DNA of 51,345 nt, taken from positions 1 through 51,345 of the forward strand of contig JAUXUN010000077.1 in the NCBI GenBank assembly GCA_030680855.1, written 5' to 3'. The position numbers and the translations under genes were made by a program. This document shows, one piece after another, positions 29,473-39,535 of this stretch (position 1 is its first letter; the number at the start of each line of letters is the position of its first letter). Origin of the DNA: Aestuariivirga sp. Lineage in GTDB: Bacteria; Pseudomonadota; Alphaproteobacteria; Rhizobiales; Aestuariivirgaceae. The notes below the pieces were generated by a model. It had not been told where the DNA came from. It did no database searches and saw nothing but the letters and a program-made list of their open reading frames with translations.

Positions 29473-29925
29473 TTAGATATCGCCAGGCGATCTAAGCAAT
29501 CGAGCCACCAACGACGTTCGCTTAGTGATTTGCAGTTTGTGAAATACTCTCCGCAGGTGCTCACGAACGGTATTGTCGCTAATTCCAAGTTCGCGCGCCA
29601 CGACCTTGTCGCATTTGCCGTCAGCGATGAGGAAAGCAATCTGAAGTTCACGAGCCGTCAGTACTGTCGCTAGATTTTTTGAGTCCAATGGAGCTCCGGA
29701 TTCCAAGCGTTCCAGCAACACATGGCTGACCTTGTCGATGATGATGGAGCCCGCTCGCCGGCATGAGCCCATAAGTGCCGGGACATAGCGCATGGCGCGC
29801 CATTGGCCGCGCGGGATGGCCTCATACTGCCTCCCACCAGCTTCAAATTTTATAACAGGTTTGTGTGCCCGCTCATCCACATGGTCAAAAACATCGCCAA
29901 CTATTCGTATGATGGGCGTAGACAT
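29473..29925 (-). CDS. LuxR-family transcriptional regulator
   Basis: ATG 29925 follows GGAGG by eight bases and gives 150 residues. The C-terminal 60 residues are a LuxR-type helix-turn-helix: LTARELQIAFLIADGKCDKV then VARELGISDNTVREHLRRVF. The first 85 residues resemble no receiver or autoinducer domain that I recognise. It lies 280 bases downstream of the ten-gene protease cluster on the same strand and may regulate it. A dyad (30134-30154) lies between the two. Confidence 0.8.
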   Translation of the reverse strand: MSTPIIRIVGDVFDHVDERAHKPVIKFEAGGRQYEAIPRGQWRAMRYVPALMGSCRRAGSIIIDKVSHVLLERLESGAPLDSKNLATVLTARELQIAFLIADGKCDKVVARELGISDNTVREHLRRVFHKLQITKRTSLVARLLRSPGDI

Positions 29926-30133
29926 TACTCGTGCCTCCGGCCGACCTAGGCCGTCCCAAAGCTGCTCTCGCTTCATTGACCGGCAACCGCAGGCACACAT
30001 ACTGGCGGTGCCGCGTTCACATTCAAGTCGGTCAGCTCCTCGCGCCGCAGCGGATTATTTGATGCTCGTGCCAACTCTATGCCGTGAGGCATCATTTCAA
30101 ACACCCACTATTTGTCAACCACCAGGAAATAAT

Positions 30134-30211: not shown

Positions 30212-31060
30212 TCATCGACCCAACCTCACGAGTGTTGCATCAGTTGCGCCACGCTCGGCATTTTTGAATTGCTGAAGCATCGCTGGCGTCAGGCGAATCC
30301 CGCGATTGAACATGCCGGCCGGCGCCATTGGCACACCAGGGCGGCAGCCCCAAGCGCCCCCGGCGTGGGGCGTTGGCCCTGCCACATGGACAGCGATGAC
30401 AGCCGGATCGCCGCCACGTTGCTGAGCACACCATACCGGACTTCCCGAATGGCCCGGGCATGTATCTACGCTGTAGAAGAGCGACCGCGCCGTGAAACGG
30501 TCCAGGCGCTCTGCATGTTCCCACATGGTGCCCGCAGGTTTATCCCCGGGGTAACCAGCGATATGCAGCAGGCGGGCGGCGCGGATCCTTTCGAGCTGGG
30601 CCTGATTTGGCGCAAGCATTCGGATGCCCCGCACCGGAGGCCGCACGGGGTGGGCAAGAACAATGATCCCGTAATCCGCTTCGCGGTCCATGGCCCGAAT
30701 GAAGCGGGCGGGTGCATACCAGCGCTGGGCCCAATGAACCGCCGGAGGTGGGGCCGCCCCATTGCGTCCAATGCTTATCCTGATGCGCATCGGCGACGCT
30801 CGCCGGCTCATACGCCGCCGTAGGTCGCTATAGAGACAGTGGCCGGCGGTGATCACAACGCGTGGAGAGATGAGAAAGCCGCTGCAGCCGGAGAAACGCC
30901 CATCGCCAAAGTCCCGTTCAACCTGGCAGGCGGCGGAATAGGGATGGCGCGCGGCGTTGAGGACCCGGGTGCGGCCGTCCACTGGCCCTATGATGGCATA
31001 GTCCATGTTGTCGGCGGTGCGATCGAGCCACAGCAGTGGTTGTTCATCCTGTAACATCAT
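30212..31060 (-). CDS. Trypsin/V8-like serine protease, last gene of the cluster
   Basis: A 282-residue chymotrypsin-fold protease. The triad is visible: His74 in VVITAGHCLYSD, Asp129 in READYGIIVLAHPV and Ser205 in CPGHSGSPVW. The presence of TAGHC and GHSGSP suggests the V8/glutamyl endopeptidase-like branch, although specificity cannot be read. No signal peptide is seen, so it is cytoplasmic unless exported by another route. It overlaps the next upstream gene by four bases. In its setting it may mature or cut the acidic protein encoded at the start of the cluster. Confidence 0.85.
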   Translation of the reverse strand: MMLQDEQPLLWLDRTADNMDYAIIGPVDGRTRVLNAARHPYSAACQVERDFGDGRFSGCSGFLISPRVVITAGHCLYSDLRRRMSRRASPMRIRISIGRNGAAPPPAVHWAQRWYAPARFIRAMDREADYGIIVLAHPVRPPVRGIRMLAPNQAQLERIRAARLLHIAGYPGDKPAGTMWEHAERLDRFTARSLFYSVDTCPGHSGSPVWCAQQRGGDPAVIAVHVAGPTPHAGGAWGCRPGVPMAPAGMFNRGIRLTPAMLQQFKNAERGATDATLVRLGR

Positions 31061-31410
31061 GCACCGCCCTCTTCCTTATCAACGGCAATCGAGGCAGGTG
31101 TTGCATCCGACGATTCAGCTTTCGCTTCCACGGGGGCCACATCTTCCATCGCTTGCGACCAAACGCCCTCGATCAGCAAGTCGGCATTTTTTCGGCCATG
31201 CAGGAATTTTGCCACGCTGTCGATGAAGGCCTGCTCCTCATCGGAAAAACCTGTGGGCTTCGTGTCTCGCTGCTCAGGCTCATGTAGCCTGATCACTTTT
31301 AATGCCGACGTCTTACCCAGACCATCGAATTCCGCTTCGACAAGTTCCTGCAATTCGATATCAATACTGTAGCCTGCTTTCCTGCCTGAGGTAGCCTGAA
31401 CCGTGCGCAT
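31057..31410 (-). CDS. Uncharacterised 117-residue protein
   Basis: I recognise no family. The sequence has a regular beta then helix character in the first 80 residues (GYSIDIELQELVEAEFDGLG, GFSDEEQAFIDSVAKFLHG). The end is acidic and Ala-rich. It overlaps the protease gene start by four bases. That coupling suggests a partner or inhibitor of the protease, but nothing in the sequence proves this. Confidence 0.6.
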   Translation of the reverse strand: MRTVQATSGRKAGYSIDIELQELVEAEFDGLGKTSALKVIRLHEPEQRDTKPTGFSDEEQAFIDSVAKFLHGRKNADLLIEGVWSQAMEDVAPVEAKAESSDATPASIAVDKEEGGA

Positions 31411-31425
31411 GGGAGTCTCCCTTTC

Positions 31426-31932
31426 TCATTCAAACGTCCGCGTGTTTCTAATGAACGACCAATCAAAAACATTCTCACGCGATTGAAGCCAGATCTCATA
31501 CATGTGAACCTCGCGGATGCTCATTGCGGCGCGCAGGAGTCCAGCCTGAATGCGGATAGTGTTGTGCTGCTCCAGCGGGACCGCATTTATGCGCGCCTGG
31601 ATACGTGCTTCGCCCCTCGGGCTTTGGGCATGTTCGTGAACCCGCACCATGATCGAATTGCTCACCGTCATGCCGATGGCAACGCCCCCACCGGGAAAGG
31701 AGATGCGGTAGAGGTTGGCCCCCCGCCGGTTAAACCGAGGCTGGCTTGCCCCGGCCAGAAGGTCGGCAAGTCCCACCGAGCCGCTCCACCCCCCCCACTG
31801 GCCAAAAGCACTGCCTGATTGCTGCGCTGGGGTTCCCCCCGAAGCCGCACGCGCGTATTCAAAGCTCCGTGAACCGCTGCGAATACGCCTGATCTCGCGA
31901 TCGACAATCGAATTAAGATGACTGGCGTGCAT
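31426..31932 (-). CDS. Uncharacterised 168-residue protein
   Basis: No family is recognised. After a charged N-terminus comes a Gly/Ser-rich linker (SGSAFGQWGGWSGSVGL), then a likely beta-rich core (NLYRISFPGGGVAIGMTVSN, MVRVHEHAQ). The start overlaps the preceding gene by about 20 bases, so a later start is possible. It is in the middle of the same-strand cluster, which supports that it is a real gene. Confidence 0.55.
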   Translation of the reverse strand: MHASHLNSIVDREIRRIRSGSRSFEYARAASGGTPAQQSGSAFGQWGGWSGSVGLADLLAGASQPRFNRRGANLYRISFPGGGVAIGMTVSNSIMVRVHEHAQSPRGEARIQARINAVPLEQHNTIRIQAGLLRAAMSIREVHMYEIWLQSRENVFDWSFIRNTRTFE

Positions 31933-32959
31933 GAGCGTCGATCCTTGGATTGCGTTTCAACGGCGGGTGCCTGCCACGGAGACGCCAGCGCCTTTCGCGC
32001 ATGGCGAGGGGGAGGTTCTTGCGGCCAGCGGCCGCAGAACGGATAGCAAGGACTTCCGCAACATTTGCCTGGGCGTCGCGCCGCAAAACAAATACCCGTG
32101 CAGGTCCGGTGAGAAGTGTTGCGATGCCGGGGCCATGGCCGGCGACGCTGCTCTCGCCATGGACAACACAGCCTATGGCAAGATGGCCCCGGGCAAACGA
32201 GCGCCCGAAGCGATGGTCGGCATCAGTGATTGCCACGAGGTCGCCAAAGCGCAAAGTCCCAAGTCCATGACGTCGTATTGTCGGCAGATCAAACATCTGG
32301 ATGTCGTAATCGCCGCGGCCTACATCTGACTTGCCCAGACCGGAGCCCATGAGCGCTGAGGGAATGAGATGCGTTACCGGAACCGACAAGCGGGCACCCT
32401 CGGTGCGCAGGCCCCATTGGGCGAGGAGACGCGGAGCCGCATTGAAAACGGCGACCTCGGGATGTTCGGCAAGACGCGTTCCCACACCGCAGGCGTACAC
32501 CTGAATGCGGTCACCAATCGCCATCCGGCGCATCGCATGGAGGGGAAAATCCACTAGGATCGTGTCGATCCCGCCATGCTTGCCAGTGACAGTACCAACC
32601 GCACCGGCCGCTGCGCCCGACACTGCTCGGGCAATGTTGCCAATGCAGGTGAGGAGCTGGAGCGCCTGGTTTGGCCCGTCGCGGTCACCTTTAACGGAAC
32701 GGGTTTCGTTACGGATGGAAACGCCGGGCTCAATATGATCGCCGGCAATGCCGACGCATGGGTCTCCAACACGGTGGGACAATACTATGCCGCCAGTGCC
32801 GGGCAAGATACGCGGCCTGCCATCCTGACCGATGCGATAGGCATTCGTACCGGCGATAGGCGACGCGATGGTTCCGATCACAGTGATCATCACCAGCTCA
32901 CGCTCGTTGATCACGGGTCCCCTTGAGCCGTTGCTAGCGCGCAACTGTCCCTCCATCAT
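31913..32959 (-). CDS. DUF4438 domain protein
   Basis: A 348-residue protein matching my memory of the DUF4438 family. Visible text includes GTIASPIAGTNAYRIGQDG, RILPGTGGIVLSHRVGDP and the GDHIEPGVSI segment. The centre carries DTILVDFPLHAMRRMAIGD, then THLIPSALMGSGLGKSDV. The family has a solved structure from Thermotoga but no assigned reaction to my knowledge. Its tail is Arg-rich. Finding it inside a protease cluster is unusual. The start overlaps the upstream gene by 26 bases, and an internal Met24 is an alternative. Confidence 0.65.
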   Translation of the reverse strand: MMEGQLRASNGSRGPVINERELVMITVIGTIASPIAGTNAYRIGQDGRPRILPGTGGIVLSHRVGDPCVGIAGDHIEPGVSIRNETRSVKGDRDGPNQALQLLTCIGNIARAVSGAAAGAVGTVTGKHGGIDTILVDFPLHAMRRMAIGDRIQVYACGVGTRLAEHPEVAVFNAAPRLLAQWGLRTEGARLSVPVTHLIPSALMGSGLGKSDVGRGDYDIQMFDLPTIRRHGLGTLRFGDLVAITDADHRFGRSFARGHLAIGCVVHGESSVAGHGPGIATLLTGPARVFVLRRDAQANVAEVLAIRSAAAGRKNLPLAMRERRWRLRGRHPPLKRNPRIDAHARQSS

Positions 32960-33752
32960 TCAGGTTGGTCCAAAAGGTTTGTGAGCCTTGCCAGGGAAGG
33001 CATTCAGCGACCGTCAGCCGGTAACGCTCTGGCGCGTACTCTCCGGGAAAATCCGGGTTGTTCACAAGATTAGCCCTAGGGGCCGCCAGCCAAACGCCCG
33101 CAACCTGGGTGTCCATCAGACCTGCGAGCTCAAGCGCTGGAATAGTGCTTGCTGCAAGTGTTGCGCTGAGCATTGACCCTTCAGGCAAGTGCTGCTGCCC
33201 GACACCGGCCGACTCCGCATCTCGACAAAGCGCTGGAGCATTGGCGCCTTTGCCAGCAGAAGTGAGGATAACAGGAATTGCCGGTGCAAGGCTTGCAGCA
33301 AGGGCCAGCGATTGCAGGCCACAGGTGACGAGTGGCGACCAACCCAGATCAAAACTGGGGTTCAGCGTATGAATTAGCGCATCGAAGCACGATACGATGC
33401 CGGGCTTGGACGCGGCGCGGCCAGGGCTTTCCTGCGGATTATCACCGATCCACTGGAAGGCGCCATGCACTACACCGTTGGCATAGGCTGCCTGCCATAT
33501 CTCGAGGCCTTCGCCGATGCGCTCATGATTGCCCACTTCATCATCATGGAGTCCAGCAAAGGGGGGTGGTGTTACATCATCAGCGTTGAAACTGATGAGC
33601 GACATGAACTCCCGGCTGAACCAGACTTCACATACGAGGGACAGCGCCGTGGCCAAAGGAAGGCCCATGGGGCGGAGAAGCAGCCTTGCATCGAGCACGA
33701 CCGGTTGCCGCACGCCGGCGGCGAATGCTGAGAGCGAGCACAGGGCAGCCAT
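32934..33752 (-). CDS. Uncharacterised 272-residue protein
   Basis: No family is recognised. The middle part carries several moderately hydrophobic stretches (GLQSLALAASLAPAIPVIL, SMLSATLAASTIPALELAGL), with CFDALIHTLNPSFDLG just before them. It could be a globular protein with buried helices or a peripheral membrane protein. It is coupled to the DUF4438 gene by overlap and starts 12 bases after the 368-residue gene, so it belongs to the operon. Confidence 0.55.
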   Translation of the reverse strand: MAALCSLSAFAAGVRQPVVLDARLLLRPMGLPLATALSLVCEVWFSREFMSLISFNADDVTPPPFAGLHDDEVGNHERIGEGLEIWQAAYANGVVHGAFQWIGDNPQESPGRAASKPGIVSCFDALIHTLNPSFDLGWSPLVTCGLQSLALAASLAPAIPVILTSAGKGANAPALCRDAESAGVGQQHLPEGSMLSATLAASTIPALELAGLMDTQVAGVWLAAPRANLVNNPDFPGEYAPERYRLTVAECLPWQGSQTFWTNLNDGGTVAR

Positions 33753-33764
33753 GGCATGGCGGCC

Positions 33765-34871
33765 TTACGCGGGAACGCGGGCGCGTGCCGTGTTCACCGG
33801 GACGCCCAGCGCCCACCGCAGGCTGCGATCCACGCCGGGGAAACTGCGGCCTTCCTGCGTAAGCCTGTAAGCTGCGATCCAGGCTTCAGCCTGGGCCGAC
33901 ATGGGCCGCGCCTCGGAACGGAAGAGCTCAGGATCGACGCTGGACGGGAAGTCGCTGCTGCCGATAAATTGCAAGAGCCTGCGCCCCACCTCCGCCATCT
34001 TTGCGCGGTGCGAGAGCTCCGCCATGCCGCCGAGATAACGGTTTGATACGGCTTCAACCACATCCCATTTGGTCATCGCATCGAATGACTTCTTGATGTC
34101 GGGCGCATCAAGCAATTCAAGGCAGGTCTGGAGGTAATTGCCGGTTTCGCGGGCAAGAGCCAGAATATTGCCATAGCTCGCACGGTCAATGGCATAACGC
34201 AGATCTGTGCCGAGCCGCTGCACTGTGGCAATCGCACCGAACGGACGGTCAGAGATTTCCGCCGAGCCGCGGATTACTTCTCCGACGACGAGATCGCGGA
34301 AGTATTGGGCGAGCGACGAGTTGAAGGCCACAAACTGGAAGTGGAAATTTCGATTGACCGCCGCACCCTGCGGTGCCGGCATGCTGCCGTAGTTGAACAC
34401 GCGGCGATAAGCGAGGCCGCGGTCGCGCCGCGTATAGCGCAGCGGCCGCCATTTCTCGAGGATGTAAAGGCCGCGTGCACCTGGCCCCTGTTGGATTTTC
34501 ATGCGGCCAAGTGCAAAGAGGCGGCGCAGCACGTCCACCACTTCAAATACTTTCATACGTTCATGCTGATAAATAAAATAGAGCTCTGCCGCCGCGTGAA
34601 CCTGACTGGGGACCACCGACTCATCGAAATCCGCTTTGAGCAGAGGATAGGGAATCTGGTCGAAGGGCTGGACACCATTTGGACCGAGGCCAATGAAATC
34701 CGGGAAGCTGGCAGCGGTCGGGCTCGAAGCACTCTCCAGCGACCGGCCCAGGAAGCCTTCGAACTGCTGCTCGAAAGCAGCACGTTCCGAGGGTGAGAGG
34801 TTCGGCAGTTCATCGCGCAGGACGCGCTGCAGAAGGCGTTGGAGAACATCATGTGTGGCTGCGTTCGACAT
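33765..34871 (-). CDS. Uncharacterised 368-residue protein
   Basis: No family is recognised. The N-terminal 60 residues are helical and charged (VLQRLLQRVLRDELPNLSPS), followed by a mixed domain with ERMKVFEVVDVLRRLFALGR and LYILEKWRPLRYTRRDRGLA. The C-terminus is largely helical. The gene is complete, 40 bases from its upstream neighbour, with coding character throughout. Nothing marks it as an enzyme. Confidence 0.6.
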   Translation of the reverse strand: MSNAATHDVLQRLLQRVLRDELPNLSPSERAAFEQQFEGFLGRSLESASSPTAASFPDFIGLGPNGVQPFDQIPYPLLKADFDESVVPSQVHAAAELYFIYQHERMKVFEVVDVLRRLFALGRMKIQQGPGARGLYILEKWRPLRYTRRDRGLAYRRVFNYGSMPAPQGAAVNRNFHFQFVAFNSSLAQYFRDLVVGEVIRGSAEISDRPFGAIATVQRLGTDLRYAIDRASYGNILALARETGNYLQTCLELLDAPDIKKSFDAMTKWDVVEAVSNRYLGGMAELSHRAKMAEVGRRLLQFIGSSDFPSSVDPELFRSEARPMSAQAEAWIAAYRLTQEGRSFPGVDRSLRWALGVPVNTARARVPA

Positions 34872-34911
34872 AGCTCAACCTCTTTGCTTACTTCGGCGTT
34901 CCCGCATGTGA

Positions 34912-35433
34912 TCAGGACGCGGCTGTCGTAATGTTGTTAGTTAATTCTTGGCGGCCGTAAGTTTTCTCGCGAGCACATTCGACAGCCTTGGTCAGTTTTC
35001 CCTCGGAGGGGAGTTCTATGTGGTGTTCTTCCGCGTGATACCGCAGCTTATTTCGGATATCCTTTGCGCGTGCCTTTGCTTTCTGGTCAAGGTCGCCCGC
35101 AATGGTTTTAAGTGAACTGAGTCCGGCCATGGAGAATATCTTGTTGAGGTCAGTTGATCCCTTGAGTGCCTCGTCGAGGAACTCCAGCGTTTCATCGTCG
35201 CATGCAGTATCGCTACCGCCGCCGCCTGGATCAGGACTTTTGATAGCATCGCGGATTTCGCGAAGAACCGTTGCAATATCCCGCAGCGATCCTTTGTCAT
35301 TCCCGGAACCAGCAACGCTCCTCAGAGTTTCATTCAGAATTTTGAGCTGGTTGATAACTGTTTCGGCGTTACGGTGGATCAGGTGTTCAGGCATGGCTCG
35401 CTCCCACGGGTGAGATATCGTTTCATCATTCAA
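34912..35433 (-). CDS. Uncharacterised 173-residue helical protein
   Basis: The N-terminal half is likely coiled coil (INQLKILNETLRSV, IATVLREIRDAIKS). A short Gly/Asp-rich linker (PDPGGGGSD) and an acidic then basic helical tail follow. There is no recognised domain. It overlaps the 592-residue gene by four bases and is probably an assembly partner of that protein. An internal Met14 is an alternative start. Confidence 0.55.
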   Translation of the reverse strand: MNDETISHPWERAMPEHLIHRNAETVINQLKILNETLRSVAGSGNDKGSLRDIATVLREIRDAIKSPDPGGGGSDTACDDETLEFLDEALKGSTDLNKIFSMAGLSSLKTIAGDLDQKAKARAKDIRNKLRYHAEEHHIELPSEGKLTKAVECAREKTYGRQELTNNITTAAS

Positions 35434-37208
35434 TCGTTTTCCAAAAGATTGATGCCAATTCCATCCGCATCATCAGTCATCCACATTTGCGCCGTTTCAA
35501 AGTCAGGCGGCATCTTCATTTCTGCGTCGCTGCAAGGTTCATGCTTGATCTCTCCTAATTCTGCGATTGCTTCCTGGACTTCTTCGATCAGTTTCGCAAT
35601 TCCCTTGCCATCGAGCACATCCAAAATAAGCTGACGTCGGCAAATCGGAGCTATCGAGGACACAAGACGCGCACTGGCACGTTCCTCCTTCAATTGATAA
35701 CAGAGCATGTCGTGCATCATCTGCGCACGATCCGATTTTAGATCAGAGTCAGCAATCTTCAGGAAGGCAGTCCAGTTTACAAGACCGGGCGCCATGGTCA
35801 TGATCTTTGTTGTCGCTTCCTTGAATTTCGCTGATCCTACGACAGGCAGAACTTTAAAATGAGCATCTACCGCTTCGATAATGGCGCCATAGGCGGCGGC
35901 TCGAACTTCCGCATCGCTCTTACCAAGAGGATCCGTGCCAAATGCGTAGAGGTCGATGGCGCGATCGAGGTCATAGACCAGCTTTGAGAAGAAGATGATA
36001 TTCTGGGCGTCGTCCTCGTCGCAGGAACAGCACAGGCAATCAATCCACTCGGCCGCCGCTGATCGTGCAAGTGCAGTCTGTATGAGCGTGAGCACAGGCT
36101 CGTCCGAGCCGCCGACGAGAGATGATTGCCCCGCAAGAAGGGGCGAACGGGCGAGGAAGGGCAGCCGGTAGCCACCAGCACTCACGGCGAAACCCTGGAC
36201 AAAGTAGCTAAGCGCTGCAATGAAGCGGGCAAGTGGTGGTGACGGCGGGCTTATTTCGGTGCTTACGACGGAAATGAATCGCCGGAAGCGTCGCACGCTC
36301 ATGCTGGCTACTGATCCCAGCGCTTTGAGTCCGTCCGCCGAATTGTCCGCGGCCAGGTCGAGCAAATCATCGAGCTGGCGCGACAGGTATCCTTCATCAA
36401 GAAGTGAGCGCAAATCCGCCGTATCGCTCGTTTCCAGCTGATTGTGAATTTGCACCAATGAAACAATGCCACGTGGCCAAAGTTCGAGTGACGATGCACC
36501 ACTCGAATTGCGGTGGAGGAGCTGCAGTTCGTTGATTACCGTGTCGCGGCGCTGGCGCAGAGTGGCTGCGGGCACGCGTGGGATATGGGTGCTGCGGGTC
36601 ACGCCGGCATCGGCCAGTCCATCGCCGAGGATTACAAGTATGAGGCTGGCGATCGCATCGCAGGCCTGGGCCAGGCGGCAGAAGGCGCCGCCGCTGCATG
36701 TTGCAAGTGCGGCGGCATAGCGCGAAACCCTGGCATAGTCTCCAAGTGTGCGGCGCGCGGTCATGGCGCGATCTGAGGATTGGGGATCAAGCGCAAATCG
36801 GGCGGCATTCAGGCCATCGGCTGCCGCAGCACGAATGGCGCGCGCCCAACCCCTCATCTCGGCGTTGATCTCGGCCAAGGCGGGATCACTGGCAATTTCG
36901 GCAAGAACCCGTTCGAGGTCAATCTGGGCATCAACAATCTCCGGTCGCGTGCCGGTAGAATTTGCGGTCGTTGCAACAGCATCTATGACGACACTGAAAG
37001 GCAGCCCCTTACGTTCGCGGTCCATTAATAGTGCGTCCTTGCCATAACGCAGGAGAAGACCGCGTGAAAGCTCTTCGACATTTGCCGGATCGCTGATCTT
37101 CAATGCTTTGCGCAATACTGACTCGACCGTTTTCTGCGGCGGGGCGCGATCCAAATCTGATGCGGAAAGGAGGGCGGGGCTTGTTGTGATCATTTTGCTG
37201 GTCCTCAT
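35430..37208 (-). CDS. Uncharacterised 592-residue helical protein
   Basis: This is the largest gene of the cluster. Its protein appears almost entirely alpha-helical. Several Cys residues group in EWIDCLCCSCDEDDAQ, which could bind a metal, though no known motif fits. It shows no Walker, transmembrane or signal sequence. Its start overlaps the HExxH gene by four bases and its stop overlaps the 173-residue gene by four bases. The three were probably co-translated and act together. A scaffold or adaptor role is possible but is only a guess. Confidence 0.6.
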   Translation of the reverse strand: MRTSKMITTSPALLSASDLDRAPPQKTVESVLRKALKISDPANVEELSRGLLLRYGKDALLMDRERKGLPFSVVIDAVATTANSTGTRPEIVDAQIDLERVLAEIASDPALAEINAEMRGWARAIRAAAADGLNAARFALDPQSSDRAMTARRTLGDYARVSRYAAALATCSGGAFCRLAQACDAIASLILVILGDGLADAGVTRSTHIPRVPAATLRQRRDTVINELQLLHRNSSGASSLELWPRGIVSLVQIHNQLETSDTADLRSLLDEGYLSRQLDDLLDLAADNSADGLKALGSVASMSVRRFRRFISVVSTEISPPSPPLARFIAALSYFVQGFAVSAGGYRLPFLARSPLLAGQSSLVGGSDEPVLTLIQTALARSAAAEWIDCLCCSCDEDDAQNIIFFSKLVYDLDRAIDLYAFGTDPLGKSDAEVRAAAYGAIIEAVDAHFKVLPVVGSAKFKEATTKIMTMAPGLVNWTAFLKIADSDLKSDRAQMMHDMLCYQLKEERASARLVSSIAPICRRQLILDVLDGKGIAKLIEEVQEAIAELGEIKHEPCSDAEMKMPPDFETAQMWMTDDADGIGINLLEND

Positions 37209-38494
37209 GCCACGGCTGCTAACTGGACAAGTGGCCGCTCGCGTTCAGCGGCGGCAAGACGTGAAAGATGTGAGACAATAAGGTGCGACAGGCGCGCCGG
37301 ATGCGCCCCCTTGCCGAGTGCTAGACTGGAGGCCGACACCAAATGGCGTGGCGGGAGGTCTTCGGGAACTTTGCCTGCCGCGAGTTTGAATGCGCCACGT
37401 TGAATGCCGGTTTCATCCCGCTTCGTGAAGGGAATGATGTCAACAAGGGCGCGTTGCCCGAGCGCGCGGCGCGGCTGGAAGGCAATTTCATCGACAATCA
37501 GCGGAATCGCCGACGGTGCCGATTGCAGGATTGGATTTGGAATCCGGTGGCCTTTTTGCGGATTGTAGAATGTGCTCCAGATACGTTTTGCAGAAGCTGC
37601 TTCTTCGGCAAATCCCATGCGCTCCATCATGGCGGCGAGGATAAACGCGCGGAGATATCCTGTGGGATGGGATCCTCCTGGCCTGTAGGTCATGGCGCGC
37701 GGCGCGGGATGGGCGAGGAAAACCATCATGCCGGTGGCGGCCGCAGGCCCACCGAGGAGGATGGCGGCCAAGTCAGCGAATATTTCCTTGTGCCAGCGGC
37801 CGTAGGTGGACACGGCTTGAGGGTTTTGGCCGGAACTCATCATGCGCCGGGTGAGCGACGTGCGATTCTCGTGCCACAACCCGAGGTCTGCCTGAAGATT
37901 ATGGGACACCTCATGAAGGAAAACGGCTTGCCAGGGATTGTCGCGGTCCCATGGGATTCGGATCACCGGGAAGGGATTGCGATCGCCGAGCAGACGCGCG
38001 AGCTGCACGCCCCTTCGCATCGTTGCGGGCGAATAACCATGTTCCAAATAGGTCAGGGGTTTCAGCAACGGTTTGGCGAGGAGTTCGGGGGCCGCCGCTC
38101 GGATGGCGCGGTAGCAGTCCAAAGCGATCACGTCATGGGCCGCGAGGGCCGGGGCGAAACTGGAGCCGCGCTGGCTGAAGATTTCGAAGAACATGCCAAA
38201 GCTGCGGCGGGCGCGGTCCACTTCACGTTCCACCATGGCCATCGCAATCAGGCGTTGGCCGGGGTTTGCCGCGCTCCAGCCAGCTTCCATGCGCTTAACT
38301 TGACGAACGCTTCTCTGGCCGATCTCGCCCAGGCGGCGGTTTGCCGCAATGAAATGTTCATGGGAAGGCGCATAGGGCATGTCCTGCGGCCTCAGGCCAA
38401 CGCGCCTGGGAGTTAGCCGTGAAAGCCTGTCAGCCCTGGCCACGAGACCATGGCGTTTGCCTTCGAGAAATTGCAGTACCACGGGCGCTGCCAT
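37205..38494 (-). CDS. Putative HExxH zinc metallopeptidase
   Basis: A 429-residue protein without a signal peptide. The zinc motif HEVSH is at 194-198 (FLHEVSHNLQADLGLWHEN). Further on, HKEIFADLAAILLGG places a conserved-looking Glu237 and Asp241 about 40 residues later, the right place for a third zinc ligand as in gluzincins. The first 150 residues are Arg-rich and helical. I do not recognise the family, so this would be an atypical or new metalloprotease. It lies second in the cluster, directly after the acidic/basic protein gene. Confidence 0.7.
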   Translation of the reverse strand: MAAPVVLQFLEGKRHGLVARADRLSRLTPRRVGLRPQDMPYAPSHEHFIAANRRLGEIGQRSVRQVKRMEAGWSAANPGQRLIAMAMVEREVDRARRSFGMFFEIFSQRGSSFAPALAAHDVIALDCYRAIRAAAPELLAKPLLKPLTYLEHGYSPATMRRGVQLARLLGDRNPFPVIRIPWDRDNPWQAVFLHEVSHNLQADLGLWHENRTSLTRRMMSSGQNPQAVSTYGRWHKEIFADLAAILLGGPAAATGMMVFLAHPAPRAMTYRPGGSHPTGYLRAFILAAMMERMGFAEEAASAKRIWSTFYNPQKGHRIPNPILQSAPSAIPLIVDEIAFQPRRALGQRALVDIIPFTKRDETGIQRGAFKLAAGKVPEDLPPRHLVSASSLALGKGAHPARLSHLIVSHLSRLAAAERERPLVQLAAVA

Positions 38495-38572
38495 GGCGGG
38501 CTCCCAAAATGTTGCGATTGAAGAAAAGAGCGTGGGGGTCTCCGCCGGTGCGGACCCCCACGCAAGTTGGTA

Positions 38573-39535
38573 TCAGAGTCTTGTGATGCGGACAGGACCG
38601 CGGACAACAAAGGTGCGGCCACGCCGGCCTGCGCCGCCGCAATTGCAACGGGGCATGCCAAGTGCGCCACCACCTGTACCACGCATAACGCGTGCCACGA
38701 TGGCGCGGCCCCGCATGAGAGGTTGTGCCAAACGGCGCAGCATGGCGGGATTTGCGGCAACGCGCCGTGCCGTGTTGAGGGCAACTTGCGGGCGTTGCCG
38801 GGCCGGCGTATGGCGCACCGCGGCGGTGCGGCGGACACTGCGAACAACACGCGGCAACGCTCGAATGGCGGCGGGTCCGCGGGTGTTGACCAAGGTTTGC
38901 GCAGCCTGGCGAACCTGGCGAACGGCGCGTACGCGCGCGGCGGCTGGTGCGGTCGTAGCGGCTTGGCGCATAAGTGCGCGTGCGGCAACGGCGGCTGCAA
39001 TTGGCGCCACGGCACGATTGCGCGCTGCAAGTTCGGACAGGGCTTCAAGAGCCTCTTCCTCGGATGCACCTTCCATCCGGAGCTGGCCAAGCACGCCAGC
39101 CACACGGCCGGCAATCTGCGCGGCGGGATGGGGAATGACCCGAAGGATTGGGGCTGCGGCGCGCGCAACCTGGCCAATTACAGGCGCAGCCCGGCGCGCG
39201 ACATTGGCCGCCGTGCTGACCACGCGGCGTGCGACGCGGGCGAGACGGCGGAAGAATTCATCTGAGTCCTCCGCAGCAAGGGCAAAAGCCAGCGCCTCGT
39301 CCATGCTGGATTCCTCGCCAGACTCATCGCCTTCATCATATTCGTCCCAGGAATCACCTTCATCGAGTTCGTCAACCTCGTCCACTTCATCACCTTCATC
39401 AAGCTCGTCGACCTCGTCCACTTCATCGAGTTCGTCGACTTCATCAAGCTCGTCCATTTCGTCATAAGCTTCTGACTGCCCTTCGGCTTCGCCAGCATCC
39501 CACTCGTCAACGAGATTTTCTTCGTAATGTGCCAT
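38573..39535 (-). CDS. Charge-segregated protein: Asp/Glu repeat head, Arg/Ala-rich body
   Basis: The first of ten cluster genes encodes 320 residues of strong charge asymmetry. Residues of about 1-80 are mostly Asp, Glu, Val and Leu in a degenerate repeat (DELDEVDELDEVDEVDELDE). Residues of about 95-300 are Ala, Arg and Val rich helix-forming text (RRLARVARRVVSTAANVARR). The tail ends with a Cys-Gly element (MPRCNCGGAGRRGR). No family is recognised. The two halves could neutralise each other. The many Glu, Asp and Arg sites would suit either protease in the cluster. A role as substrate, nucleic-acid binder or scaffold is open. Confidence 0.6.
   Translation of the reverse strand: MAHYEENLVDEWDAGEAEGQSEAYDEMDELDEVDELDEVDEVDELDEGDEVDEVDELDEGDSWDEYDEGDESGEESSMDEALAFALAAEDSDEFFRRLARVARRVVSTAANVARRAAPVIGQVARAAAPILRVIPHPAAQIAGRVAGVLGQLRMEGASEEEALEALSELAARNRAVAPIAAAVAARALMRQAATTAPAAARVRAVRQVRQAAQTLVNTRGPAAIRALPRVVRSVRRTAAVRHTPARQRPQVALNTARRVAANPAMLRRLAQPLMRGRAIVARVMRGTGGGALGMPRCNCGGAGRRGRTFVVRGPVRITRL
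39352..39470 (-). repeat. Degenerate in-gene tandem repeat coding for the acidic head
   Basis: Short repeats based on TCATCGAGTTCGTC and related 12- to 18-base units encode the Asp-Glu-Leu-Asp-Glu-Val pattern. The units are imperfect and keep the reading frame. Confidence 0.7.

What the first reader, a model, noticed from the sequence alone, without database searches (positions are those of the whole stretch)
30212..39535. Ten-gene, two-protease cluster with no recognised overall function
Seen: ten consecutive minus-strand genes, several joined by four-base overlaps. They encode a serine protease with an intact triad, an HExxH protein, a DUF4438 protein, six orphan proteins and a charge-segregated protein. 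None has a signal peptide or a known partner such as an NTPase, so the usual conflict-system or secretion layouts do not apply. I infer a self-contained machine in which one or both proteases process a cluster protein. A LuxR-type gene next to it may control it. This is the best candidate for an undescribed system.
Basis: partly seen in the sequence, partly recalled or inferred. Interest (0 to 1): 0.85.

Follow-up and report, generated by a model that had tools for sequence, protein, structure and literature searches.

The report
Undescribed protease gene cluster across phyla
A set of about ten neighbouring genes, built around a metal-dependent protease and a protein with an acidic front and a positively charged back, is kept in the same order by very different bacteria, and I found no description of what it does.

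Summary
In detail: ten co-directional genes (A to J, 30212-39535) plus an adjacent LuxR-type gene (K, 29473-30000). A scan with the HExxH gene B gave 77 loci in named genomes. Of the 63 with at least 6.5 kb downstream, C is in 60, E in 63, F in 55 and G in 56, and 61 keep the order; an A copy lies directly upstream of B in 68 of 69 testable loci and K is near in 48 of 48. The set occurs in Pseudomonadota, Cyanobacteriota and Planctomycetota, without F in Myxococcota, and as A-B-x-E-K in one Acidobacteriota genome. The genes co-diverge and each one tested has dN/dS below 1. Slot D is hypervariable (23 families in 47 proteins). Against indivisibility: DUF4438 (G) mostly occurs elsewhere, J is in a minority, distant B relatives occur without E. 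My reading: A is an acid-masked precursor with cationic amphipathic helices and a C-terminal tag, cut by metalloprotease B; C and E scaffold, D gives specificity, K regulates. Cleavage and output are inferred. No description was found in the library searched.

The parts
38573..39535 (-). Gene A, 320 aa: acidic N-terminal third (net -42), then cationic thirds (+8, +24)
   Evidence: an A copy directly upstream of B in 68 of 69 testable loci; 108 of 108 family members taken have a negative first and a positive last third
39176..39274 (-). A residues 88-120: strongly amphipathic cationic helix-like stretch (18-residue windows with hydrophobic moment to about 0.84, net charge up to +5)
   Evidence: the median number of such windows is 0 in B, C, E, F, G and J
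38576..38602 (-). A C-terminal tag (window RGPVRITRL; usual form xxRGPVxIxIR)
   Evidence: strict pattern in 70 of 108 A proteins (the window's own A fails it and fits the loose one), loose pattern in 84 of 108; strict pattern in 0 of 1,088 other genes called in the loci
37205..38494 (-). Gene B, 429 aa: zinc metalloprotease with a gluzincin-like sequence pattern
   Evidence: H194 E195 H198 E237 D241 H276 in 41 of 41 aligned relatives; no Pfam or NCBIfam match
37901..37915 (-). HExxH motif of B
37772..37786 (-). ExxxD motif of B, likely third zinc ligand
   Evidence: the ligand role is inferred from the gluzincin pattern, which is recalled
35430..37208 (-). Gene C, 592 aa orphan with a conserved Cys cluster
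   Evidence: Cys 391, 394, 396, 523 in 43, 42, 46 and 44 of 55
34912..35433 (-). Gene D, 173 aa (TTG start): hypervariable slot between C and E
   Evidence: 23 BLAST families among 47 D proteins; one family each for B, C, E, F, G in the same loci
33765..34871 (-). Gene E, 368 aa, highest column identity of the four families aligned (66%), all-helical model
   Evidence: no clear fold match; lowest dN/dS in all four groups
32934..33752 (-). Gene F, 272 aa, probably PIN-like fold, probably not an active nuclease in the window
31913..32959 (-). Gene G, 348 aa, DUF4438 (TM1086 family), recruited
31426..31932 (-). Gene H, 168 aa orphan, add-on module
   Evidence: found in 16 of 63 loci
31057..31410 (-). 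Gene I, 117 aa orphan, add-on module, fast-evolving
   Evidence: found in 18 of 63 loci
30212..31060 (-). Gene J, 282 aa, S1-type serine protease with intact triad, add-on module
   Evidence: found in 22 of 63 loci
29473..30000 (-). Gene K, LuxR-type (GerE) regulator, constant neighbour
   Evidence: GerE 2.9e-13; 48 of 48 testable loci, 34 downstream and 14 upstream on the other strand

Best explanation
The genes form one LuxR-controlled system, probably spread in part by horizontal transfer, whose heart is a precursor-protease pair. A is made as an inactive precursor: its polyacidic N-terminal part neutralises a set of cationic amphipathic helices, and it ends in a conserved tag. Metalloprotease B, encoded next to it, cuts A and frees or matures the cationic part. 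C and the highly constrained E form the scaffold on which this happens, D supplies lineage-specific specificity or cargo, and F, G and (in one branch) H-I-J are accessory. The freed part probably acts on membranes or nucleic acids in a conflict or self-limiting response. Shown: the conserved unit, its anatomy, selection, and the intact protease motifs. Inferred: that A is B's substrate, the scaffold role, the roles of D and K, and the conflict output.
For: An A copy directly upstream of B in 68 of 69 testable loci. All 108 A proteins taken are acid-then-basic. Their cationic part has a median of 25 windows with hydrophobic moment of at least 0.6 and charge of at least +4, against a median of 0 for B, C, E, F, G and J. 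C-terminal tag, strict pattern: 70 of 108, 0.04% in shuffled tails, 0 of 1,088 other genes. B's catalytic residues in 41 of 41. Acidic genes also sit directly upstream of distant B relatives (113-133 bits) in L139, L140 and L141, where the downstream genes are different. Co-divergence of B, C, E, F, G: r 0.73-0.92, 0 of 500 permutations as high for each pair. dN/dS below 1 for every gene tested. K in 48 of 48. D hypervariable.
Against: No cleavage site or product is known. The A set was gathered with a profile grown from the window's A, which can favour charged proteins, so its charge pattern is partly selected for; the tag and the amphipathic part are less open to this. The strict tag is missing in 38 of 108 A proteins and the tag is absent from A of L077, L079 and L080. 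One B relative (L082) lies beside a PLD-like gene, not an A. In the L139-L141 loci the A profile scored 21 and 19 bits in two and nothing in L141, where the label rests on appearance. Charge-segregated helical proteins can also form condensates or bind nucleic acids. No export route and no immunity gene is recognised. No known defence or toxin family was hit apart from weak matches of J.
Confidence: 0.4

Rival explanations
1. Structural body: A, C and E assemble into a proteinaceous particle, coat or condensate; B (and J) are maturation proteases as in capsid or coat assembly; D is a variable exposed or cargo protein.
For: E is extremely constrained (median dN/dS 0.01-0.16 in four groups) and 66% identical by column across 55 sequences of several phyla, as expected of a lattice-forming protein. 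A is a polyampholyte with a terminal tag.
Against: No convincing match of the E model to a solved or viral structure. No E or B relative in phage records or confirmed in viral contigs. No known structural family in the ten proteins; PHROGs gives A a match to a tail tape measure family at 5.1e-4, which I take for a compositional match of a helical repeat-rich protein.
Confidence: 0.25
2. Intracellular conflict (immunity or programmed-death) system of the kind that uses trypsin- or CHAT-type proteases, here with B and J as proteolytic effectors acting on host proteins rather than on A.
For: Patchy distribution, hypervariable slot D, and distant relatives beside CHAT, S8, patatin and PLD genes or S8 and peptidoglycan-active genes. 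One neighbour in L084 has a weak Trypco2 match (E 0.0098, below the curated cut-off).
Against: No NTPase and no known defence family in the ten genes beyond weak matches of J. It does not explain why A adjoins B almost always.
Confidence: 0.2
3. Biosynthetic cluster: A is a ribosomal precursor whose C-terminal part is matured to a secreted peptide or signal by B and accessory enzymes.
For: A conserved C-terminal tag on a variable precursor with a dedicated protease resembles the metallopeptidase and FxSxx-COOH pairs described in PMC7159879 (section 24 read). PLP-enzyme and amidohydrolase genes accompany some distant A-B pairs.
Against: No radical-SAM, transporter or known modifying family was hit in the window's ten proteins; A is long (320 aa in the window).
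Confidence: 0.15

Closest known systems
Metallopeptidase and FxSxx-COOH peptide-processing systems (PMC7159879; section 24 read)
   Same: A zincin gene beside a variable precursor protein that ends in a conserved C-terminal motif
   Different: No radical-SAM, AP-ATPase, vWA or FtsH gene among the window's ten; A is large and charge-segregated; the tag differs
VMAP/MoxR ternary conflict systems with trypsin plus Trypco1/2 (PMC7159879, passages seen; PMC10907252, passages seen)
   Same: Trypsin-like protease in a fast-diversifying cluster; one distant relative locus has a weak Trypco2 match
   Different: No MoxR, vWA or Trypco hit in the window's ten proteins; J is optional in the family
DUF4438 / TM1086 (PDB 3dcl, 3n99)
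   Same: G matches over residues 18-304 (E 9e-56)
   Different: Elsewhere DUF4438 stands apart from this cluster, in two loci read between leucyl/phenylalanyl-tRNA protein transferase and carbon-nitrogen hydrolase genes
PIN-domain proteins (SMG6, SMG5, VapC)
   Different: Third acidic residue is Gln in the window (D in 40 of 45) and the second is variable (E in 17 of 45); residue roles recalled

Membership tests
Gluzincin-like metalloprotease (B) | HExxH plus downstream ExxxD (pattern recalled) | tested here: met
   41 of 41 aligned sequences
Gluzincin-like metalloprotease (B) | Zincin fold | not tested
S1 trypsin-like protease (J) | His-Asp-Ser triad and family profile | tested here: met
   Pfam Trypsin 6.1e-12; triad kept
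DUF4438 (G) | N and C domains of the family | tested here: met
   PF14505 1e-49, PF20999 2.8e-41
LuxR-type regulator (K) | GerE DNA-binding domain | tested here: met
   PF00196 2.9e-13
PIN domain (F) | PIN fold | tested here: inconclusive
PIN domain (F) | Full set of acidic active-site residues | tested here: not met
   D21 and E48 present, third acid is Q147 in the window
Metallopeptidase/FxSxx peptide-processing system | Zincin-like gene beside a precursor with a conserved C-terminal motif | tested here: met
   cleavage itself not tested
Metallopeptidase/FxSxx peptide-processing system | FxSxx, RxD or acidic C-terminal motif; ATPase, vWA or FtsH partner | tested here: not met
   Tag is GPVxIxI-like; no such partner hit in the ten proteins
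VMAP/MoxR conflict system | MoxR ATPase and vWA protein | tested here: not met
   No hit in the ten proteins
Known anti-phage defence systems (PADLOC-DB 2.0.0) | Profile match of component proteins | tested here: not met
   Only weak local matches of J (LmuA 4e-4, Avs1b 0.044)
Known anti-phage defence systems | Protects against phage | not testable with these tools
   needs an experiment
Phage-derived gene block | Relatives in phage or viral records | tested here: not met
   No B or E match in phage records, none confirmed in viral contigs; the other eight proteins were compared with PHROGs only, where J matches a family of unknown function (7.3e-7), A a tape measure family (5.1e-4) and B one at 0.052

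The most novel reading that the evidence does not exclude
A new class of bacterial machine, spread across at least five phyla, in which a dedicated zinc protease activates an acid-masked cationic amphipathic protein on a helical scaffold protein of possibly new fold (E), with a hypervariable specificity slot (D) and its own LuxR switch. It may have arisen from an older A-B module that other lineages combined with different partners (PLP enzyme, amidohydrolase, S8 protease, peptidoglycan hydrolase).
Probability: 0.35. Interest if true: 0.88.

Novelty: categorically new. Interest (0 to 1): 0.74.

Why it matters
A gene order of six or seven genes kept between Alphaproteobacteria, cyanobacteria, myxobacteria and a planctomycete, in a patchy distribution, points to a useful function that I could not find described. 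Eight of the eleven proteins have no confident Pfam family. The cluster offers concrete, testable parts: one protease with an obvious candidate substrate, one conserved tag, one variable slot, one strongly constrained protein (E) without a clear fold match, and one regulator.

Tried and rejected

Papers: DUF4438, PF14505 and PF20999 gave 0 papers. TM1086 gave 7, seen as a listing only; one is about crystallisation by in situ proteolysis, the others look unrelated. Combination searches gave 1 (listing only), 0, 0, 1 and 2 papers; of the last two, passages of PMC7159879 and PMC10907252 were seen and section 24 of the former was read. The library lacks most subscription papers.
Full report
What is there. 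The ten ORFs lie on the minus strand at the stated coordinates. In transcription order I call them A (39535-38573) to J (31060-30212). K (29473-30000; GerE domain) follows J after 286 bases if its start at 29925 is used. B/C, C/D and I/J overlap by 4 bases, F/G by 26, G/H by 20. The window is the whole 51,345-base contig C64 of a draft genome of 3.73 Mb. No protein of the ten has an N-terminal stretch above 1.51 on the hydropathy scale used.

Known families. Pfam names G (DUF4438, both domains) and J (trypsin) among the ten; NCBIfam shows only weak matches far below its cut-offs. PADLOC shows only weak local matches of J. PHROGs: J to a family of unknown function at 7.3e-7, A to a tape measure family at 5.1e-4 and to a head protease family at 0.087, B at 0.052. 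G matches TM1086, whose structure is solved.

Conservation. The one genome-contig scan, made with B, gave 77 loci, most at 52-66% identity and three (L077, L079, L080) at 34-37%. The scan uses exact short peptide patterns, so it favours close relatives. Iterated profiles over these 77 loci plus three short ones found B in 80, C in 74, E in 71, F in 58, G in 59, J in 23, H and I in 18 each and A in 75 of 80; D found nothing, the short own-genome locus not reaching it. As loci were chosen by B, the other genes are the informative ones. Of the 77, 63 have 6.5 kb or more after B: C in 60, E in 63, F in 55, G in 56, H in 16, I in 18, J in 22, and 61 keep the same order on the same strand; the two exceptions (L004, L034) look like overlapping ORF starts. 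Of 69 with more than 1.2 kb before the B start, A is directly upstream in 68; in L076, the miss, the raw A ORF overlaps the B call. Of 48 with room on both sides, a K-type gene is near in 48 (34 downstream, 14 upstream on the other strand).

By record title and gene content: ten of eleven cyanobacterial loci have A, B, C, E, F and G, the eleventh (L038, 4.3 kb) B, C and E; the Kuenenia locus has A, B, C, E, F, G, I and J; six of eight Myxococcota loci have A, B, C, E and G without F, the other two end early; the Acidobacteriota locus L077 has A, B, E and a J-like gene that lies upstream; a 3.7-kb Desulfuromonas contig has A, B and C.

Spread. In the B tree (76 rows) the window groups with an uncultured Rhodospirillales bacterium (L004; 97/92). 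Kuenenia lies in a set of Pseudomonadota (87/88) and two Acetobacteraceae group with the Cyanobacteriota and Methylococcaceae rows (97/91). The phylum labels need 5 changes, the least possible being 4. This allows transfer but does not prove it. The system is rare. Own genome included, B is in 3 of 150 relatives, one of them a weak match at 9.5e-16; E is in 2 of 150 and in 3 of 398 Pseudomonadota. In the phylum of the Microcystis genome E is in 6 of 291, that genome included, one a partial hit at 2.9e-4 and one a distant 630-aa form. In the sample no other genome of the same genus has E. In the 398 Pseudomonadota B is in 6, and all three E genomes have B; the other three carry distant B relatives without E. 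E is single copy in the 13 genomes searched behind loci.

Selection. Distances of B, C, E, F and G correlate at r 0.73-0.92, with 0 of 500 permutations as high for each pair (proteins under 75% of the median length were dropped). This includes shared ancestry, so it shows co-inheritance, not contact. Median dN/dS is below 0.6 for every gene in four groups of relatives; E is lowest in each (0.01-0.16); the highest are I and D in Mesorhizobium (0.35, 0.31), D in the Roseateles group and Aromatoleum (0.48, 0.46) and C in Corallococcus (0.56).

A. I took the window's A and 107 of 116 A calls (plus strand, over 180 aa; 9 left out). All 108 have a net negative first third (median -36.5) and a positive last third (median +25). 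The profile was grown from a charged protein, so this pattern is partly selected for. The C-terminus carries a tag, xxRGPVxIxIR: strict pattern in 70 of 108 (the window's own A is not among them), loose pattern in 84 of 108, 0.04% in shuffled tails, strict pattern in 0 of 1,088 other genes. The cationic part is amphipathic beyond shuffles (z over 2 in 102 of 108); the controls B, C, E, F, G and J have median z of -0.7 to 1.8 against 3.9, and a median of 0 windows that are both amphipathic and strongly cationic against 25. Of 50 loci with room to score, 27 have two or more A and no J downstream, 17 one A and J, 4 one A and no J (one of them L077, whose J is upstream), 1 two A and J, 1 J and no called A (L076). 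So the J module and the second A look like alternatives; shared ancestry may account for this.

D. Of 68 loci with C and E called, 52 have 450 bases or more between them, 1 has 150-450 and 15 under 150. The 46 D proteins called there and the window's fall into 23 BLAST families, against one family each for B, C, E, F and G in the same loci. Short, coiled-coil-like proteins are harder for BLAST, so 23 may be too many. By eye some contain recognisable sequence (CBS-like in L061, transthyretin-like in L015 and L026); this was not tested with profiles.

Older module. More distant relatives keep an A-like gene, B and E with a different protein between: L077, L080, L110, L111, L112 and L114 and L081. 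The A profile scores only 25-34 bits for the best A gene of L110-L112. L115 ends before A. A K-type gene is near in L077, L080, L081, L111, L114 and L115, and was not found in L110 or L112. L112 also has an F relative on the other strand. Further out, L139-L141 have an acidic gene, a B relative, a long orphan and an amidohydrolase-like gene, and two of the three a PLP-enzyme-like gene (by Pfam only in L139, by eye in L140 and L141; Pfam also finds a PLP enzyme after K in L077 and an amidohydrolase in L112). L110 has an M15/peptidoglycan-binding gene after E. Plasmid relatives stand beside CHAT, S8, patatin and PLD genes (L082) or S8 and peptidoglycan-active genes (L083, L084). These contexts suggest an A-B module reused with different partners.

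G is not bound to the system. In the 398 Pseudomonadota 69 have DUF4438, and only two of these (the own genome and G311) have E. This is where the finding's own refutation test fires.

Mechanism. Shown: the gene unit, the protease motifs, the anatomy of A, hypervariable D, constant K. Inferred: B cuts A (adjacency, dedicated protease, maskable cationic helices, tag), C and E scaffold, D gives specificity, K regulates. The output (antagonism, immunity, structure or signal) is undecided; I lean to a conflict-type output.

Novelty. No description was found in the searched library of open papers (TM1086 listing). Of PMC7159879 I read section 24 and saw passages; of PMC10907252 I saw passages.

Noticed in passing
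L128 and L129 (unnamed Pseudomonadota genomes): The gene at the place of the DUF4438 hit sits between leucyl/phenylalanyl-tRNA protein transferase and carbon-nitrogen hydrolase genes in both, a possible lead to the function of DUF4438.
   Followed up: partly
L130 2689-6683: Two DUF4438 hits next to malate/L-lactate dehydrogenase-like and M24 peptidase genes.
   Followed up: no
L082 (Bradyrhizobium quebecense plasmid): B relative between a PLD-like gene and two CHAT genes, with patatin-like, S8 and GMC oxidoreductase genes nearby; a second weak B-like gene (26 bits) at 582-1931.
   Followed up: partly
L139, L140, L141: Acidic gene, B relative, long orphan and amidohydrolase-like gene; PLP-enzyme-like gene in two of three, sigma-54 activator by Pfam in L139: a possible sister system.
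   Followed up: partly
L077 3300-18295: Several further acidic proteins, a J-like protease and two LuxR-type genes cluster around the A-B-E unit.
   Followed up: no
window 36021-36038 (gene C): Conserved Cys cluster (residues 391, 394, 396, with 523 elsewhere) suggests a metal site.
   Followed up: no
window 30091-30118, minus strand: A promoter-like site (10 of 12 matches) lies between J and K, though the scan as a whole is no better than shuffles.
   Followed up: no
window 38379-39467, plus strand: Long antisense ORF (362 aa) opposite A, probably a by-product of A's repetitive codons.
   Followed up: no
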